From positions 1 to 20,271 of the IMG/VR virus record IMGVR_UViG_3300025889_001211: 20,271 nt of DNA; one strand, 5' to 3'. The notes below the pieces were generated by a model. The model was not told where the DNA came from and did not search any database. It worked only from the letters and a program-made list of their open reading frames with translations. Source of the stretch: a virus. This document shows positions 2,132 to 15,620 of the stretch, in pieces (position 1 is the first letter of the stretch; each line of letters opens with the position of its first letter). The translations under genes were made by a program, and so were the position numbers.

Positions 2132-2677
2132 TTATCCGTATACGATAGTCGGTGCATTTGTAAAGCCTGCCGCTCCAAATGGGTCACCAAATGTGCTTCC
2201 ACTAACGAATGATGCTGGGAATTGTTCTTGTCCGGTGAAGGTCACAGCATAACCGTAAAGGTCTCCGAGTCCTGCTCCTGTTTGAATTGTTCCAGCGGTC
2301 AAATCAGCTCCTTCTCTTTCACCTACTAACAAGGTATCACCCTGCATTGTGTGAACAAAGATTTGAGGTCTTGACCAAGCCATCAACTTCAATTGAGTAG
2401 TCATCTCATTTGTAAGCTTCTTCAAGTTAAGAACCAATTCTTGTGAGAAGAATGTAGTGCCGTTTTCTCTTGAAGTATTTACGGTCTCTTGATAATTTGA
2501 AGTTCCCTTCAATTCGTAGTAGTATGCGTTCATTCCACTGGTTGGAAAGCCATCAACAAGACCTGAACCGTCTTTGCTGAATGAACCAGTTTGGAAGTTT
2601 ACGAAATACACACCAGCTAAACCACCAACGGACTCTTTACACACTTCTTGTCTACCTGCTGTTAAATCACATGCCAT
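2132..2677 (-). CDS. Probable tail tube (major tail) protein
   Basis: This 181-residue protein is the last gene of the leftward operon. It begins MACDLTAGRQEVCKESVGGL and has the features YYYELKG, SRENGTTFF and VTFTGQE, which I recall from structural proteins annotated as tail tube or unknown virion protein in phages of Bacteroidota. Alternating polar/hydrophobic strands and many Gly, Thr and Ser residues fit the beta-barrel tube fold. It follows the capsid gene after an 81-nt spacer carrying a GC-rich hairpin, which would allow its level to be set separately. It has no signal peptide. The virion role is fairly safe from context; the specific tube assignment is inference, and a head decoration or connector protein remains possible. 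Confidence 0.65.
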   Translation of the reverse strand: MACDLTAGRQEVCKESVGGLAGVYFVNFQTGSFSKDGSGLVDGFPTSGMNAYYYELKGTSNYQETVNTSRENGTTFFSQELVLNLKKLTNEMTTQLKLMAWSRPQIFVHTMQGDTLLVGEREGADLTAGTIQTGAGLGDLYGYAVTFTGQEQFPASFVSGSTFGDPFGAAGFTNAPTIVYG

Positions 2678-2758: not shown

Positions 2759-3715
2759 TTATACTGATGGGATGTGAATAGCCACATCAGAAAGGATACC
2801 TACTTGTGTATCCGCAGTGTATCTCATGATTACTCTGAAGTTCTGTGAACCATCCAAATCTGCCATGTCTAAGATACGCACTTCGTTGTAGTCGTTCATC
2901 AAACCAGTACCGAAGAACAAGTTTGATTTTTGAGCTGCTACAGCGTAAGAATCAGTCATACCTGGGCAAAGTGCCAACTCAATACCATTGAAGTTCATTG
3001 GCTTCTCACCCACGTTCATTTGGTTGTTCCAACCATTAGCACCTTGCGCACCACCAGCCAAAGCTTGTTGGTATGCCTTAGCCACGTTAGTTGCTACATA
3101 GATGGTCAAGTCTTCCTTACCATAAACTGCTGCTGGGATAGCGTCAACCAATGCTGATAATTTATCCAACACGTTAGCTGAAGTGATAGAGCCAGATGCA
3201 GAAGATTGGATTGCATCAGATGCTCCTGCAGTTGCTGCAGATGCAGAGATTACTGGAAGTAAACCTTTGAACTGACCGTTAGTTGCTGCTGCACCAGTCC
3301 AGATAGAAGTTTCAGTAGCTTCAGCTACCTTACCACCTACATAAGATACCAAGTAATCGGTGAATGTAGCAGGAACTTCATCAAATGCAGAGTAGCCCAA
3401 TTGAAGAGCTTCCCAAGATGCTACGAAGTTTTGCTTACACAATTCCAAGTTTACCTGAAGCTCTTTTGGCTCAAGGATTCTTTCAGTTAATGCTACAGTA
3501 CCAGAAGTAGTGAAATCACAAGAAGCATCGTTAACGATTGAGTCAACATCAACTCTCTGAATTACTTGCTTATACTTTACATTAGGAACAATAGTAATGT
3601 AGTTATTGTCCAATGTTCTTGCAGACAACAAAGCTGCTGCAATATACTTACCCGCAAATTCGCCAGCGTATGTGCTAGTGATAGAAGGCTGAGCAAATTT
3701 CTGTAATTTTCTCAT
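2759..3715 (-). CDS. Major capsid protein (HK97-fold type, probable)
   Basis: This 318-residue protein begins MRKLQKFAQPSITSTYAGEF, an N-terminus I recall from capsid proteins of uncultured Bacteroidota phages. Supporting features are its length, the Ala/Gly/Ser-rich middle (about 160-185), the segment LTERILEPKELQVNLELC (about 77-94) resembling the long helix/strand region of such capsids, and a C-terminal beta-rich part (FRVIMRYTADTQVGILSDVA) typical of a P-domain end. It is directly preceded by an acidic scaffold-like gene, with a 15-nt gap, which is the usual head-gene order. No protease domain is fused to it, and I see no separate maturation protease in the window. Confidence is high for a head protein and moderate for the exact fold. 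Confidence 0.8.
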   Translation of the reverse strand: MRKLQKFAQPSITSTYAGEFAGKYIAAALLSARTLDNNYITIVPNVKYKQVIQRVDVDSIVNDASCDFTTSGTVALTERILEPKELQVNLELCKQNFVASWEALQLGYSAFDEVPATFTDYLVSYVGGKVAEATETSIWTGAAATNGQFKGLLPVISASAATAGASDAIQSSASGSITSANVLDKLSALVDAIPAAVYGKEDLTIYVATNVAKAYQQALAGGAQGANGWNNQMNVGEKPMNFNGIELALCPGMTDSYAVAAQKSNLFFGTGLMNDYNEVRILDMADLDGSQNFRVIMRYTADTQVGILSDVAIHIPSV

Positions 3716-8617: not shown

Positions 8618-11600
8618 TTATTGGAAATTATTTAATCCTACTAAGTACAATGAGGTTGTATCAAATGCGATGAATGTAAGAACATCCTCCGCAGTTGCTG
8701 ATGATGCAGTAAAGAACGAGCCCGATGGTTGTAAGATGTTCGGACCAAACGATACAGTTGCTCCACTTACTGATTTAACCAACATATTCACAGTTTGAGA
8801 ACCCTGAACATTCTCTGCTGTGATGTGTGTATCTCCACTTACCAATTGTAATACAAAGAAGTTTCCAGCACTCACATCCATAGATGCAGTTGTAGAAACA
8901 ATACTCATATTCACGTGATTTCCTTTGAGAGAACCTGTGATTCCTACACTACCTGTAATTTGTGCTGAACCTGAGTATGGGAATGTATCTACAGTCACCA
9001 TACTACCAGTGATTGCTGAGCCAGATACAACATAGAGTGTGTTAGGGTCTTTAGTACCCAACGCTGCGTAAGATGCTGATGTAATTGCTACCACATGCTT
9101 TACGGATGGAACACCACCATAGGTTGGGGATACATTATCTACTAATGAACCGGTGTAAGAGCCAGATGTAATAAAATAACTTCCACTTACATCTACCGAG
9201 CCCGTTACTTCAGCTTTACCAACAAATGGGAATCCACTTCCACCTCCACCAGCAGCATCAATCTCAACAGTCACAGTTCCACCACCAGCATCAGTCACAG
9301 TCACAGCACTACCTGTAAAGTTTAATGTTGATGCATCAGCGATTTCAACACTATCTTTTGCAATTGCTAAGATGGTTGTATTACCCGAAGTTCCCGAAGT
9401 TCCTCCACTACCTGCCGTTCCGTTAGTTCCATCAACACCAGAAGTACCCGATGTACCAGCAGGGCCTGTTGAACCTGTGGTTGCAGTTGAGCCAGATACG
9501 ATATATAATGTATTTGGGTCTTTTGTTCCTAATGCTGCATATGATGCTGAATCCAATGTTACAACGTGGTTTACTCTACCCACATCGGTGTATGTATCGG
9601 TAATGTTGTCCACCACCGAACCTGAGTAGGTATCCAAAGATAAAGAAATACTACCAGTTACACCTAAACTACCAGTGATTTGAGCACTACCAGTAAATGG
9701 GAAACCTGTTGCTTCATCTACAACAGAGCCGGAGATTACATATAAGGTATTTGCATCTACTGAACCCAAACCATCGTATTCCGCTTGTGTAAGGGTTACG
9801 ATATGTTCAATTCTATCTACTGATGTGTATATATCACCAATGTTATCAACTACTGAGCCAGAGAACGAACCTGTGGTGATTGTGATACTTCCACTTATGC
9901 TTGTACTACCAGTTACTTTTAATTCACCTTCAATGGTAGTCAAACCATCGTTTCTAACTGAAAGGAAATCAGTTGTTGATATATTACCTACAACTCTAAA
10001 CAATCCGGTATCAGGAGTAGTTCCTCTATTGGATACAATCCATAAACCAGCACCTTTGTTTACCGCTGGTGAACCATCAACATTTATTCTTACAACAGGA
10101 GTATTAGTTGCTTGATTTGCTTGGTCTTGAGTGAATACGATTTGTTGGTCTTTACCAACTTCAACATCTAAGCTACCAGTTAAGATAATACTACCTGTGA
10201 TTTGAGCACTACCTGTGAATGGGAATGCATCAGCCGTATTACCTGATGTGCCGGATGTACCACCACTTCCAGCAGTACCATTAGTTCCATCCACACCTGA
10301 TGTTCCAGCAGTTCCGTTTGTACCATCTACACCGGATGTACCAGCTGAACCATTGGTTCCGTCTACACCACTTGTCCCTGCTGTTCCATTTGTACCATCT
10401 ATGCCAGATGTACCAGCCGTACCATTTGTACCATCAATTCCTGAAGTACCCCCAGTACCATTAGTTCCATCTACTCCGCTTGTTCCTGCTGTTCCGTTTG
10501 TTCCGTCTATACCGGAAGTTCCATCAGTTCCTGATGTTCCACCAGTACCAGATGTACCTGATGTATTTGCATCAAATAAAGAAGAAGATGCTATCTGAGT
10601 TGGTACTCCATTAGAATCACCTACCCACAAGTATCCTTCTTGAATGTTTGGTAAGTTATTTCCAACTTGGTTAAAGATGATTCCTCTACCATTATTAGAA
10701 GAACGAGTAATAACTCCTAATGTCTGAACCGAGTTAGCAGAACCTGATGGTCTTGTTGGTGTCCATCCTCCATTTATTCCTAAATAAACAATTGTTCCAG
10801 CAGGATATAATGATGTATCTACACCAATGATTTCACCACTAATTAAGCCAGTACCCGTAGCAGAAGGTGCTAATGTAGTATCACCAGCAATTAAAGTAGC
10901 AGGTCTACGATTTGCTTGTCCTGCTCTTGCTATATATACATTTGCATTATCACCAGTTGCACCTGATACAAATAAAGGTGTACCTTTAAGGATTGATGAG
11001 GTTTCAGCGTTGTGAATGTTTTGGTGAAGTGTTTTAACCCAGTCTAAAGAAAGATTACCAGCTCCATCCGTAGTTACAAACATATCAGTTTGGCCATCAG
11101 CTGTTGGATAGTTTAGTCCACTTGCCGTTAATTCGTTTACTACTCTAACTGAACCATAAAGAGTTTGAACATCATCTGCCGCATCACCAAATTGGTTAGA
11201 GCCAGATGAATAGATTACTGATGATGTTTCAATTTGAACTAATAATTTAGAAGCTGTGATGTCTCCTGTTACATTAAGTGAACCATTAAATAATTGGTCA
11301 CCATTAAATGTATTACTACCAGTAGTAGCGTAAGAACCAGTCTTAGCAGTTAAATTACTGATGTTTGTAGTGTTGGTTGATATATTACCCTCATCAGTTG
11401 TTAATCTGCTTTCTAATGAAGAAGAAAGGGCATCTACGGATGCAGTTGTTGCATACCCACCAGTAACGGATGTAAGAGAATCAATTTGAGTTTGGAGTGA
11501 GCCTGTCTCCGTCTCTAAACTATCTAATCTTAAATCAGTTGATTGTGTATATGCGTTAAATGATGCGGTTGTTACCAATGATGAGGTATCAACGGATACA

Positions 11601-11946: not shown

Positions 11947-12207
11947 TTATCTAATAACATCAAAATCAGATGAGAATGCTCTTGAGAAAGCTCCTCTTTG
12001 AACTGGTGGTGCTTGTAATCTTCCTATACTTTGGTTTATCAATAATCCATCACAACACTCCCTTGAATAATTATTGGAATCTAAACACAAACAACCTCGT
12101 CTATTTGTTTTAGGAACTGCTAATCCCTGAGTAGGTCCTTTTACGATACCACCTTTGGAATTACGATAATTTTGATTATCCTTCCATGCTACTCTATACC
12201 TTTTCAT
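11947..12207 (-). CDS. Cys-rich mini-protein with CLC...CCDGLL motif, copy 2
   Basis: This 86-residue protein has a central motif at 36-63: RRGCLC, then NNYS, then CCDGLLINQSIGR. The same motif is in the preceding gene (12204-12389), and parts are identical in DNA (12085-12098 matches 12297-12310; 12043-12057 matches 12255-12269), so the two are tandem duplicates. Four cysteines in a CxC...CC layout could bind a metal or form disulfides. The N-terminus is basic (MKRYRVAWKD) and the C-terminal 20 residues carry RGAFSRAFSSDFDVIR. The start overlaps the previous stop as ATGA. I recall similar motifs near fibre genes of Bacteroidota phages but know no function. A small virion or tail-assembly component is a reasonable guess. 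Confidence 0.75.
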   Translation of the reverse strand: MKRYRVAWKDNQNYRNSKGGIVKGPTQGLAVPKTNRRGCLCLDSNNYSRECCDGLLINQSIGRLQAPPVQRGAFSRAFSSDFDVIR

Positions 12208-12389
12208 AGACTTCCAGTTACTGCGCTTATTCTTCCAATACCCTGTTCAATTAGTAATCCATCACAACATCTAACCGAGTATTCATTTCGGTTTCTACAC
12301 AAACAACCTCTACGAGAGTTCTTTGGAGATGATAAACCCCAGCTTCTCTCATATTTGTTCGGTTTTGGGATGTGTTTCTTATTGAACAT
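12204..12389 (-). CDS. Cys-rich mini-protein with CLC...CCDGLL motif, copy 1
   Basis: This 61-residue basic protein carries the motif at 26-53: RRGCLC, then NEYS, then CCDGLLIEQGIGR. The motif is almost the whole protein, with only a short N-terminal leader (MFNKKHIPKPNKYERSW) and eight residues after it, so the motif is probably the functional unit. It follows the end of the frameshifted tail-chaperone-like gene by 32 bases and is coupled to copy 2 by ATGA. It is shorter than copy 2, which has gained a C-terminal extension. Function is unknown; metal or disulfide-based stabilisation is suggested by the conserved Cys pattern. Confidence 0.75.
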   Translation of the reverse strand: MFNKKHIPKPNKYERSWGLSSPKNSRRGCLCRNRNEYSVRCCDGLLIEQGIGRISAVTGSL

Positions 12390-12421: not shown

Positions 12422-13188
12422 TTATGTATTGGAGTTCATAGCTTCTTTGTGCATTAACCCCTGTAATTGATTGTAATCAGCTTGGTATGCAAGGTATAAC
12501 AAACACTTCTCTAATGGTAAGGAGAGAACCTCATCAAAGTTTAAGATGTCATTGTTGGAAAGTTGGACAATAGCTCCATAGCCTCCCCATTTCTTTCCAA
12601 AATTGACTTGATGTTGGGAGGAAGCTTCTCCGCCTTCAAAGATTTCAGGATATCGTTCACTAAGTCCTCCGATAAAAGAAAAAAAAAGTGTAATGCCCCA
12701 AAGTGGACATCCATAGGCACATCTAAAAACTTATCCTCATCCATCACACCTTTGTATGCTTCTATGTTATACTGAGTTAAAACCTTCTTTGTAATAGGTC
12801 TATATAGAATAGACATAATCTTCTTCCAATTATCGTTGATAGAGATTGTATCATACTTTGTGATGTCCAAATATGCACCATATGCAATCTTAGATAGGTT
12901 TGGTTCAAATCCATATTCCTTATCCCCAATCTTTATTATCCTTTGTAGAGGTAAATCAGTCTTACCAATAAACTCCATCAAATCCACTTTAATTTCACCA
13001 TACATATCAGATGGTAATTGCCCAATGTAATCCGTTGGAACTTTGCAGAAATGGTGTAGTAAACAAGCCATATAGCCCGTTTCTTCTTCTCCATAGATTT
13101 CCAAATCCTTTTGGAAACGGAGGTATTCTCTCAAAGTGATTGCTGACCAATCCTTTGGAACTGTTATCTTTAATTCTTTCGTTGCCAT
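12422..13188 (-). CDS. Tail assembly chaperone-like fusion made by -1 ribosomal frameshifting
   Basis: The zero frame (12541-13188) and a second open frame without a start codon join at the T-run 12687-12679. A -1 slip after codon 170 continues with TCT (12679-12677) and runs 85 codons to TAA at 12424-12422, giving about 255 residues. The extension has the features SERYPEIFEGG, NFGKKWGGYGAI and FDEVLSLPLEKCLLYLAYQA, which resemble the C-terminal parts of tail assembly chaperones (the T part of G-GT pairs), as I recall them from Bacteroidota phages. It contains no in-frame ATG before its last 15 codons, so frameshifting is the simplest way to express it. Known G-GT proteins bind the tape measure protein during tail assembly. 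Confidence 0.7.
12541..13188 (-). CDS. Tail assembly chaperone-like protein, zero-frame (G-type) product
   Basis: This 215-residue, mostly helical protein starts MATKELKITVPKDWSAITLR and contains LPLQRIIKIGDKEYGFEPNL (about 79-98), a conserved-looking segment I recall from uncultured Bacteroidota phages. Codons 167-171 read CAC TTT TTT TTT CTT, a poly-U slip site, after which the zero frame continues another 45 residues to a stop at 12541. The two products share their first 170 residues. The start overlaps the FkbM methyltransferase gene by 19 bases. The chaperone role comes from the frameshift architecture and the extension, not from a domain recognised in this part. A tape measure gene, the usual partner, is not in the window. 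Confidence 0.75.
   Translation of the reverse strand: MATKELKITVPKDWSAITLREYLRFQKDLEIYGEEETGYMACLLHHFCKVPTDYIGQLPSDMYGEIKVDLMEFIGKTDLPLQRIIKIGDKEYGFEPNLSKIAYGAYLDITKYDTISINDNWKKIMSILYRPITKKVLTQYNIEAYKGVMDEDKFLDVPMDVHFGALHFFFLLSEDLVNDILKSLKAEKLPPNIKSILERNGEAMELLSNFPTMTS
12679..12688 (-). other. Programmed -1 frameshift slippery site
   Basis: On the - strand the sequence is C then nine T (12688 to 12679), followed by C and four more T. In the reading frame the heptamer T-TTT-TTT fits the X-XXY-YYZ rule for -1 slippage at codons 169-170. The -1 frame stays open for 85 codons beyond it. Confidence 0.7.
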
Positions 13189-13826
13189 AGTTTTACAAAG
13201 TGTGAATCCACACCATTACCTTCAGTATAGATTTCGGTGTGTGTTTTGTTAATGTGTCCAAATAGTAAATCTTGCTTCTCCTTACCTAAAAAGTTGTGAA
13301 ACTCACCAACTATGTACTGGATAGTAGATAGTTCAGCATGCATCAAAAAAGGATACTCAGCTCCTTCACAATCTATCTTTAGTAAGCCAACCGCTCTACC
13401 TTTAACCAAATCCTCAAAAGAGATAGTAGATACTTCTTCGTATTCTCCTCTCCATCCGTGGTTGTTATCCGTATTTAGGTATTGGGTTGTTCCAAAGTTG
13501 CCTGAAAGGGTATCACCCCCATCGTTATAATAGTTTTGTAATTGTAGGGTATCATCTGATGAGTGATATACTGCTCTTTGTATAGGAGTGATTGGTGTAT
13601 TCTTTTGGATTTGCTCACAATTGTAGGTGGATGGCTCTACCATTTCCCAATTATCGGAGATGGATGACCAAGCTCTATAAAACCCTCCTACATTTGCTCC
13701 TATGTCCAACACCAAATCTTCTTTAGAAATCTTTAGAAGATGTATAGGGTAATGCCTACATTCTGATGTTACTATATCTAACCAATTCTCTGGCTGATTA
13801 CTTGCTACTAATTTATCTACTTTCAT
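13170..13826 (-). CDS. FkbM-family SAM-dependent methyltransferase
   Basis: This 218-residue protein shows the class I methyltransferase motifs of the FkbM family: motif I VLDIGANVGGFY (39-50) for S-adenosylmethionine binding, an acidic residue after the second strand (EMVEPS, 61-66), AVYHSSDDTLQL (85-96), and the FkbM hallmark LLKIDCEGAEYPFL (148-161) followed by GEFHNF (174-179). FkbM enzymes usually O-methylate sugars or small molecules. Its place between packaging genes and tail genes, coupled by TGATG to the upstream coiled-coil gene, suggests modification of a virion glycan or a host-surface glycan, for example to block superinfection. The substrate cannot be read from sequence. There is no signal peptide, so it acts in the cytoplasm. 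Confidence 0.85.
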   Translation of the reverse strand: MKVDKLVASNQPENWLDIVTSECRHYPIHLLKISKEDLVLDIGANVGGFYRAWSSISDNWEMVEPSTYNCEQIQKNTPITPIQRAVYHSSDDTLQLQNYYNDGGDTLSGNFGTTQYLNTDNNHGWRGEYEEVSTISFEDLVKGRAVGLLKIDCEGAEYPFLMHAELSTIQYIVGEFHNFLGKEKQDLLFGHINKTHTEIYTEGNGVDSHFVKLWQRKN

Positions 13827-14140: not shown

Positions 14141-15325
14141 TTATCTAATTGAAATGGCATAAGTGCCATAGTTTTTCTTTTTGTTTGATAGCATCCAACT
14201 TCCTACATACCTACAAGCATCAATTGCGTGGTTGTTGGTATCTATGGGCTCGTTCAAAAGAGAATTGTTTTTATCTTTTTTCCACACATAGGAATAGAAC
14301 TCATCAATTAGATTCTTTGAGTTCTTTGTTAAATGTATTTTGTGTTGCTTTAGTGTATCTATTCCAGCCATAATACTATCAGGTCCTTTGAGGGCTGGTT
14401 TAATGTTGATTCCACCACTACGGAAGATTTCTTCTATAAGTCTTGGGTCAGATGAGTCCGCAATTACTTCCTTTCTGCCATAAGCGTTGTATGCTCCTCT
14501 AATAAAGTTTGAGATTTGATTTGAGAGTAGGTTTTTCTCATAACATACCTCATCAAAGTAAATACCCTCATCACCTTTCCATAGGGATACCAATGCGGTT
14601 GGGTCATTTGTAAAGCCAAAATCACAGCCATACCCCAATAGCTCACAGCCCTCAGGTATGTAATCTACCACATTTACATTATCAAACACCAATCCTTCAA
14701 TCATACCTTCCAAACCTAATCCATAGGTTTTCCAATAGGATGGTGATGTATGCTCTAATCTTTCAATCTCCTGTATTATCTCATCCTCTAAGAAGGGATT
14801 ATCCTTATAGGTGGAGATAATCCTCTCTGCTTCAGGGTGTGTAAGCATTTGGGTATAAATCCAATGGTTTGTTGGGAACGATGGGTTGTATGCTATTATA
14901 GTTTTGTTTGAAGTTCTTATGAATAGCTGGAACATATCATCCCAGTCTAACTCATTTGCTTCATCAACAAAAAGATAATCTCTTTTAGTTCCCTTTCTTC
15001 GTTCACCATCTTGCACCGATAAGAACTCTATGGTTGAGCCATTATGGAATGTGTATTGGTTTTCTGAAGCATACCATTGGTTTTCGTTCCACAAGTCCAA
15101 CTCCTTCATTATATTACGAAAGTCTCTTAGAGTTGAAATGCGTAGGGATGGGAAGGATTTTCTTACGATGGATATAGATGTTCCAGCTTCTTCTAATGCT
15201 TTTACTACCAAATACTGAACGGCTGAATAGGATTTACCACTACGAGTTCCTCCTTGTAGTATTACTATTCTCCCTCCGTTTAATATATCAGTAAAAGTCT
15301 TACTGGTCTTTATTTTTACTTCCAT
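14141..15325 (-). CDS. terL: Terminase large subunit (DNA packaging ATPase and nuclease)
   Basis: This 394-residue protein starts at ATG 15325, which has GGGAGA eight bases upstream; a TTG at 15352 would extend it by nine residues. The N-terminal ATPase shows Walker A GGTRSGKS (25-32) and Walker B YLFVDEANE (117-125, with the D-E pair at 121-122), followed by a coupling-motif-like IIAYNPS. The C-terminal RNase H-like nuclease shows GCDFGFTNDPTA (catalytic Asp near 235), IADSSDPR (Asp near 290) and NHAIDACRY (Asp near 369). This is the PBSX/Terminase_3-like type. With the small subunit it cuts concatemeric DNA and pumps it into proheads. The gene overlaps the small subunit gene by 26 bases. 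All key residues appear intact. Confidence 0.95.
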   Translation of the reverse strand: MEVKIKTSKTFTDILNGGRIVILQGGTRSGKSYSAVQYLVVKALEEAGTSISIVRKSFPSLRISTLRDFRNIMKELDLWNENQWYASENQYTFHNGSTIEFLSVQDGERRKGTKRDYLFVDEANELDWDDMFQLFIRTSNKTIIAYNPSFPTNHWIYTQMLTHPEAERIISTYKDNPFLEDEIIQEIERLEHTSPSYWKTYGLGLEGMIEGLVFDNVNVVDYIPEGCELLGYGCDFGFTNDPTALVSLWKGDEGIYFDEVCYEKNLLSNQISNFIRGAYNAYGRKEVIADSSDPRLIEEIFRSGGINIKPALKGPDSIMAGIDTLKQHKIHLTKNSKNLIDEFYSYVWKKDKNNSLLNEPIDTNNHAIDACRYVGSWMLSNKKKNYGTYAISIR

Positions 15326-15620
15326 CTTTATTCTCCCTTTGTATAACTTCAATTTGTAGCTTTTCTACTCTTGCATTTACTTCCGCATCTACCTTCATAT
15401 CTACGCTCTTTAGCTTTGGAACTACATACTCCAATAACTTTAAATAAATCTCAGCTGCTTTGATTGGATTTTCTTTTCTTATCTTATCTATATCTTCGGT
15501 AATATTGTCCAATCCTTTATTAGCCAATCGGGCAAGCGTGAGTTTGGCTTGTTCCGTAGAACGATTGATAGCTCCTTTTGGTCTACCACCACTTAACTTA
15601 TGTCCTTTTTCAAACGGCAT
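15300..15620 (-). CDS. terS: Small terminase subunit-like DNA-binding protein
   Basis: This 106-residue protein begins MPFEKGHKLSGGRPKGAINR, a GGRPKG-type basic N-terminus typical of small terminase-like phage proteins, followed by helical segments (STEQAKLTLARLANKGLDNI, then IYLKLLEYVVPKLKS) and a Lys/Asp-rich tail. It precedes and overlaps the large subunit gene, the classic order. The small subunit recognises the packaging site and regulates the large subunit ATPase. The 75-base AT-rich stretch upstream (15621-15695) is one of the longest gaps in the packed operon and might hold an extra promoter, although no TAnnTTTG match is present. Confidence 0.8.
   Translation of the reverse strand: MPFEKGHKLSGGRPKGAINRSTEQAKLTLARLANKGLDNITEDIDKIRKENPIKAAEIYLKLLEYVVPKLKSVDMKVDAEVNARVEKLQIEVIQRENKDGSKNKDQ

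What the first reader, a model, noticed from the sequence alone, without database searches (positions are those of the whole stretch)
12422..13188. Hidden -1 frame extends a tail-chaperone-like gene through a poly-T slip site
The zero-frame gene (12541-13188) contains C-T9-C at 12688-12678, in frame as CAC TTT TTT TTT CTT. A -1 slip on T-TTT-TTT opens 85 further codons ending at 12422, with a conserved-looking protein (SERYPEIFEGG, NFGKKWGGYGAI, LPLEKCLLYLAYQA) and no usable start codon of its own. The G/GT frameshift pair of tail chaperones is established in lambda and many tailed phages. This extension sits in a stretch that a simple start-to-stop annotation leaves empty. What is unusual is that no tape measure gene follows and the probable tube gene is 10 kb away.
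Basis: partly seen in the sequence, partly recalled or inferred. Interest (0 to 1): 0.8.

Follow-up and report, generated by a model that had tools for sequence, protein, structure and literature searches.

The report
Poly-T frameshift gene in Bacteroidota siphophages
A phage gene makes a short and a long protein by slipping one base backward on a run of nine T's; the same hidden design is kept in every one of 84 related viral sequences checked, so it is a real and previously unannotated two-product gene, probably for building phage tails.

Summary
A T9 run (12687-12679, minus strand) sits in the 215-codon gene, and a -1 shift adds 85 codons, ending at 12422. It is not chance. All 84 surveyed IMG/VR relatives, plus three P12024-type phage sequences (about 26% identity), carry exactly T9 or T10 at the homologous point. 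The -1 frame is open 85-93 codons beyond it in the IMG/VR loci (about 80 in the P12024 type), and the zero frame stays open 25-59. In 706 kb of these loci, every T-run of 9 or more but two is this site. The -1-only part evolves like ordinary coding sequence (pN/pS 0.22; 0.85 in the wrong frame); the overlap looks dual-coding. So two nested products (about 215 and 255 aa) are under selection. Distant siphophages (Duneviridae, Leef) and a Microcystis phage encode both halves in one ORF without a T-run. The tail-chaperone (G/GT) reading is plausible but unproven: no known chaperone profile or solved fold matches, and the gene lies beside TerL, about 18.5 kb from the tape measure, which exists elsewhere in the genome. 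T9-T10 with no conserved RNA structure suits RNA-polymerase slippage at least as well as ribosomal frameshifting; only RNA or protein data can decide.

The parts
12541..13188 (-). zero-frame gene: short product, 215 aa (N-terminal domain of about 170 aa plus a 45-aa zero-frame tail after the slip site)
   Evidence: PHROG 32199 unknown function; AlphaFold2 N-domain pLDDT 91, pTM 0.86
12679..12687 (-). slip site: run of nine T (C-T9-C), codons TTT TTT TTT, containing T_TTT_TTT in the zero frame
   Evidence: T9 or T10 in 84 of 84 relatives and in P12024S/L
12422..12679 (-). -1-frame extension: 85 codons plus stop, completing the 255-aa long product
   Evidence: pN/pS 0.22 in the -1-only part; aligns with single-ORF proteins of other siphophages
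12541..12678 (-). dual-coding overlap: zero-frame tail and -1 extension read from the same bases
   Evidence: zero frame open 47 codons on average against 8.7 expected; synonymous change suppressed about 2.8-fold
14141..15352 (-). large terminase (TerL), syntenic neighbour of the gene in this phage group and in P12024S/L
   Evidence: Pfam Terminase_3/3C
2759..3715 (-). probable major capsid protein, used for synteny
   Evidence: phrog_11320 unknown function; conserved position between scaffold-like gene and portal region in relatives; identity inferred
   Evidence: phrog_19091 unknown function; a homologue occurs twice in P12024S

Best explanation
This is a programmed -1 recoding gene of a group of aquatic siphophages related to Nonlabens phage P12024S (hosts most likely Bacteroidota). 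SHOWN by comparison: the DNA encodes two nested proteins under selection, a short zero-frame protein of about 215 aa and a long protein of about 255 aa that shares the first 170 residues and continues in the -1 frame after a T9/T10 run. INFERRED: the long form arises when RNA polymerase adds one U on the run (its 9-10 bp hybrid lies entirely inside it), so that a fraction of mRNAs carry the -1 frame; the ribosome may add to this by slipping on U_UUU_UUU. INFERRED: the pair acts like lambda gpG/gpGT, the common N-terminal domain handling the tape measure and the -1 domain recruiting tail-tube subunits, with the slip rate setting the short:long ratio. My estimates: real conserved recoding 0.97; tail-assembly-chaperone function 0.6; polymerase slippage as the main mechanism 0.55.
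For: All 84 loci have T9 (47) or T10 (37), never 7, 8 or 11, in three codon phases, always with the -1 frame open 85-93 codons and the zero frame 37-59. P12024S/L and L132 have T9 in a further phase arrangement at about 26% protein identity. T-runs of 9 or more in 706 kb on both strands number 86, 84 of them the slip site. The -1-only region has pN/pS 0.22, equal to the N-terminal part, against 0.85 in the wrong frame; the overlap shows suppressed synonymous change. The zero frame stays open 47 codons against 8.7 expected from resampling. The fused protein aligns end to end with single-ORF proteins of Duneviridae, Leef and Microcystis phages (hhalign prob 94-96%, E 5.6e-9 to 8.3e-8; shuffled and reversed controls at most 1.2%), and those genes have no T-run above 6. 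In Duneviridae that gene lies between adaptor and tape measure. BFVD fold matches include an entry named tail assembly chaperone (E 5.8e-3, prob 0.99). Efficient slippage in vivo at 9 A/T and a 9-10 bp RNAP hybrid: PMC5009743; the nine-nucleotide limit in bacterial genomes: PMC1088944. No conserved structure 3' of the site.
Against: No Pfam, PHROG or NCBIfam chaperone model matches, and no PDB fold matches. The N-domain contains beta-hairpins, whereas I recall solved chaperones as all-helical. The gene is beside TerL, not beside the tape measure. U_UUU_UUU is itself a ribosomal slippery heptamer, and some phage G/GT sites work without stimulators (PMC5009743), so T9/T10 does not exclude the ribosome. 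No RNA or protein was examined.
Confidence: 0.62

Rival explanations
1. The same two products are made by classical ribosomal -1 frameshifting: tandem tRNA-Phe slips on U_UUU_UUU, as in lambda G/GT; the extra T's are incidental or raise the efficiency.
For: Every site contains T_TTT_TTT (T10 phase-1 and T9 phase-2 sites often also T_TTT_TTY) in the zero frame. U_UUU_UUY is among the efficient heptamers in E. coli (PMC4066793). Phage G/GT frameshifting is known to be ribosomal and may lack stimulators (PMC5009743).
Against: Seven T's would suffice, yet 0 of 84 loci have 7 or 8, across three phases and down to about 26% identity. No conserved 3' structure. T>=9 is otherwise nearly absent from these genomes.
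Confidence: 0.42
2. The two products are real but are not tail chaperones: another two-form structural or assembly protein, e.g. a head-tail joining or packaging factor, given its position next to TerL.
For: Adjacent to TerL in this group, in P12024S/L and near it in a Microcystis phage; no chaperone profile or fold match.
Against: Homologues found among named phages are in siphophages where morphology is recorded (Ingeline, Leef, laban6-1); in Duneviridae the gene is in the adaptor-to-tape-measure interval; a dual-product -1 shift with a small alpha-helical -1 domain is the hallmark of G/GT.
Confidence: 0.35
3. The T-run is a replication-slippage switch (phase variation) or a decayed gene rather than programmed recoding.
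For: Homopolymers of 9-10 are hypermutable (PMC1088944).
Against: If it switched, some loci would carry an in-frame length; none of 84 does. Both frames are under purifying selection.
Confidence: 0.03
4. Sequencing or assembly error in a homopolymer: the gene is really one ORF.
For: Homopolymers are error-prone, and distant relatives do have one ORF.
Against: 84 loci from many metagenomes and the P12024S/L isolates agree, with run lengths that differ by phase yet always leave the same -1 relation.
Confidence: 0.01

Closest known systems
lambda gpG/gpGT and other -1 frameshift tail assembly chaperones (Xu 2004; reviewed in PMC5009743)
   Same: One gene, two nested products from a -1 shift in the 3' part; small C-terminal domain in the -1 frame; long-tailed phages.
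   Different: Slip site is an invariant T9/T10 instead of a heptamer such as G_GGA_AAG (from memory); zero frame runs 37-59 codons past the slip instead of stopping soon after; gene lies by TerL, not between tail tube and tape measure; no sequence or PDB-fold match to known chaperones.
Bacterial transcriptional-slippage genes: Thermus dnaX (A9), Shigella mxiE/spa33, Citrobacter tssM (PMC5009743, PMC1088944, PMC4256274)
   Same: Long run of identical A/T (nine or more where stated) in a coding region, two products of different length.
   Different: Viral structural-gene neighbourhood; both reading frames conserved for about 45 codons; slippage not yet measured here.
Single-ORF homologues: phrog_25418 proteins of Duneviridae (FPSV-F7, laban6-1, Ingeline), Polaribacter phage Leef, Microcystis phage Mea-Yong924-1
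   Same: Colinear homology over both domains of the fused product.
   Different: One continuous ORF of 259-301 aa, no T-run over 6; no short form apparent.
Nonlabens phages P12024S/L gp38 + gp39 (Inhavirus)
   Same: Same gene beside TerL, T9 run, -1 frame open.
   Different: About 26% identity; annotated as two separate hypothetical genes, gp39 being only the end of the -1 frame.

Membership tests
Tail assembly chaperone G/GT family | Short and long product sharing an N-terminus through a conserved -1 shift | tested here: met
   84 of 84 relatives plus P12024S/L; selection in both frames
Tail assembly chaperone G/GT family | Gene located between major tail protein and tape measure gene | tested here: not met
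   Beside TerL; tape measure about 18.5 kb downstream in G003. Met only loosely in single-ORF Duneviridae homologues
Tail assembly chaperone G/GT family | Match to a known chaperone profile (Pfam Phage_TAC, PHROGs, NCBIfam) | tested here: inconclusive
   No match; these families are often undetectable by sequence
Tail assembly chaperone G/GT family | Fold of solved chaperones | tested here: inconclusive
   No PDB match for the N model, none credible for the C model; one BFVD match named tail assembly chaperone
Tail assembly chaperone G/GT family | Phage has a long tail with a tape measure | tested here: met
   Tape measure PHROG hits in a relative, E 8.8e-17
Tail assembly chaperone G/GT family | Long form binds tail tube, short form binds tape measure, both absent from virion | not testable with these tools
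   Needs protein work
Ribosomal -1 programmed frameshifting | X_XXY_YYZ heptamer in the zero frame | tested here: met
   T_TTT_TTT in every site
Ribosomal -1 programmed frameshifting | Stimulatory 3' structure | tested here: not met
   Consensus -1.1 kcal/mol over 14 sequences, no consistent stem; not required in all phages
Transcriptional slippage | Run of at least 9 A or T at the frame junction | tested here: met
   T9 or T10 in 84 of 84
Transcriptional slippage | mRNA population heterogeneous at the run | not testable with these tools
   Needs RNA from infected cells
T4 gp26/gp51 chaperones | Sequence homology | tested here: inconclusive
   hhalign probability 0.3-1.1% against single T4 sequences

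The most novel reading that the evidence does not exclude
A phage tail-chaperone-type gene whose short:long ratio is set by RNA-polymerase slippage rather than by the ribosome, with the run length held at 9-10 to match the RNA-DNA hybrid, in a large uncharacterised group of aquatic phages; related siphophages solved the same problem with a single ORF.
Probability: 0.35. Interest if true: 0.72.

Novelty: new variant of a known kind. Interest (0 to 1): 0.55.

Why it matters
It adds a large, unannotated set of recoding genes: the first broad scan alone gave 531 candidate relatives. Standard gene callers truncate the gene or split it, as happened in P12024S. If the shift is transcriptional, it would show that a fixed ratio of two tail-assembly proteins can be set at the RNA-polymerase level. 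The coexistence of frameshift and single-ORF homologues makes it testable whether the short form is needed at all.

Tried and rejected
Sequencing error and phase variation: rejected because 84 of 84 loci keep the same out-of-frame relation. Separate gene for the extension: no start codon precedes or opens it in the window; ATG positions in relatives are scattered and mostly far downstream. T4 gp26/gp51 as homologues: no support. PDB sequence and fold searches gave no credible match for either domain. Flavobacterium phage 6H looked at first like a second frameshift case, but its -1 frame is closed at the T6 run and its close relatives (FPSV-F7) have one 293-aa ORF, so its 191-aa protein is probably a sequence error or local mutation. 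The genome-contig scan found no relative in cellular genomes. No paper found in the library describes this case.

Full report
WHAT WAS CLAIMED AND WHAT IS THERE. The window is a 20,271-base IMG/VR fragment. On the minus strand the gene 13188-12541 encodes 215 aa. At 12687-12679 it reads CAC TTT TTT TTT CTT; a -1 slip gives 85 more codons to the stop at 12424-12422 and a 255-aa protein, while the +1 frame closes within a few codons. The stretch of -1 frame before the run contains no ATG, GTG or TTG. The coordinates in the finding are right.

CONSERVATION. Close relatives (94-100% aa identity) keep the T9 run and the open -1 frame wherever the contig covers them. A profile scan of viral contigs reached relatives at 47-60% identity. 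All 84 surveyed loci carry a run of exactly T9 (47) or T10 (37) at the homologous point, in three codon phases (T9 phase 0: 43; T10 phase 1: 37; T9 phase 2: 4). In all, the -1 frame stays open 85-93 codons and the zero frame 37-59 codons beyond the run. Nonlabens phages P12024S and P12024L, at about 26% identity, have T9 in phase 1, and so does an 87%-identical environmental copy; there the -1 frame runs about 80 codons and the zero frame 25. In the 706 kb of the 84 loci there are 86 T-runs of nine or more on both strands; 84 are this site.

SELECTION IN BOTH FRAMES. Over 47 pairs of relatives, the part read only in the -1 frame has pN/pS 0.22, identical to the undisputed N-terminal part (0.22); read in the zero frame the same bases give 0.85. 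In the overlap, synonymous change in the -1 reading falls from 0.371 to 0.133, as expected if the zero frame is also constrained. Resampling synonymous codons of the -1 protein leaves the zero frame open for 8.7 codons on average; the observed mean is 47 (67 distinct sequences). The sequences are related, so these are not independent trials, but the effect is large and recurs across divergent clades. The zero-frame tail therefore is not a mere run-on: both a short and a long protein are maintained.

RELATIVES WITHOUT A FRAMESHIFT. AlphaFold2 gives a confident N-domain (pLDDT 91, pTM 0.86) and a moderate, helical C-domain (pLDDT 76). Among predicted viral structures the N-domain matches 37 proteins with E at or below 0.001, several of 241-268 aa that also match the C-domain model in the same chain. 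One hit, in Flavobacterium phage 6H, led to Duneviridae, Polaribacter phage Leef and a Microcystis phage, where one ORF of 259-301 aa carries both parts. Profile-profile comparison aligns the fused protein with these over 230 columns across the junction (prob 94-96%, E 5.6e-9 to 8.3e-8), against at most 1.2% for reversed or column-shuffled controls. These single-ORF genes have no T-run over 6. The long T-run goes with the split frame.

GENOME CONTEXT. In a 31.6-kb relative (G003) the order is TerS, TerL, this gene, a small gene, a long fibre-like gene, scaffold-like, probable capsid, portal, DUF6712 protein, further tail-region genes, tape measure (PHROG tape measure hits, best E 8.8e-17) and S78_2 protease. 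The tape measure is thus about 18.5 kb downstream. G001 (34.9 kb) shows the same synteny and appears to close on itself, and P12024S has the gene directly after TerL. In Duneviridae the homologue sits between adaptor and tape measure, with other small genes in between.

MECHANISM. What is shown is a conserved DNA arrangement; slippage itself was not observed. Ribosomal slippage on T_TTT_TTT is possible at every site. Three things favour RNA-polymerase slippage: the length is never 7 or 8 although 7 would serve the ribosome; it equals the 9-10 bp RNA-DNA hybrid and the 9 A/T run at which efficient slippage in vivo is documented (PMC5009743; PMC1088944); and no conserved structure follows the site. 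Some phage G/GT sites also lack stimulators (PMC5009743), so this stays near even.

FUNCTION. The design (nested products, small -1 domain, long-tailed phages) matches lambda G/GT, where the shared part binds the tape measure and the -1 part the tail tube (PMC5009743). No chaperone profile or PDB fold matches, the neighbourhood is not canonical, and only one weak structural match bears the chaperone name. I therefore say it works like G/GT with probability about 0.6 and do not file it as a proven member.

VERDICT. A real, conserved, previously unannotated programmed frameshift gene; new variant of a known kind.

Noticed in passing
window 11947-12207 and 12204-12389, minus strand: Two small tandem genes (86 and 61 aa) are paralogues sharing a cysteine-rich motif (RGCLC...YS..CCDGLL..Q.IGR); the 86-aa one is conserved next to the frameshift gene in relatives (G001, G003, G005).
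   Followed up: no
window 13170-13826, minus strand: FkbM-type methyltransferase (Pfam PF05050) inserted between the 103-aa gene and the frameshift gene; no homologue at this place in relatives G001, G002 or G003.
   Followed up: no
L120 (KC959568) 10352-10927: Flavobacterium phage 6H protein of 191 aa is truncated relative to 293-aa single-ORF copies in FPSV-F7 and relatives; the break lies at a T6 run, so a sequence error or mutation is likely.
   Followed up: partly
L100 (JQ823122) 23663-23830: P12024S gp39 is annotated as a separate 55-aa gene but is the end of a -1 frame that is open back to the T9 run in gp38.
   Followed up: yes
L100 2149-2694 and 5953-6552: P12024S carries two genes of the phrog_19091 family (gp3 and gp9), related to window 2132-2677; one may be a head and one a tail protein.
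   Followed up: no
L112 4826-5527: Gene near the tape measure in G001 has a weak match to a DNA-methyltransferase PHROG.
   Followed up: no
L004-L007: Several near-identical contigs begin or end inside this gene, suggesting strain variation or assembly breaks there.
   Followed up: no
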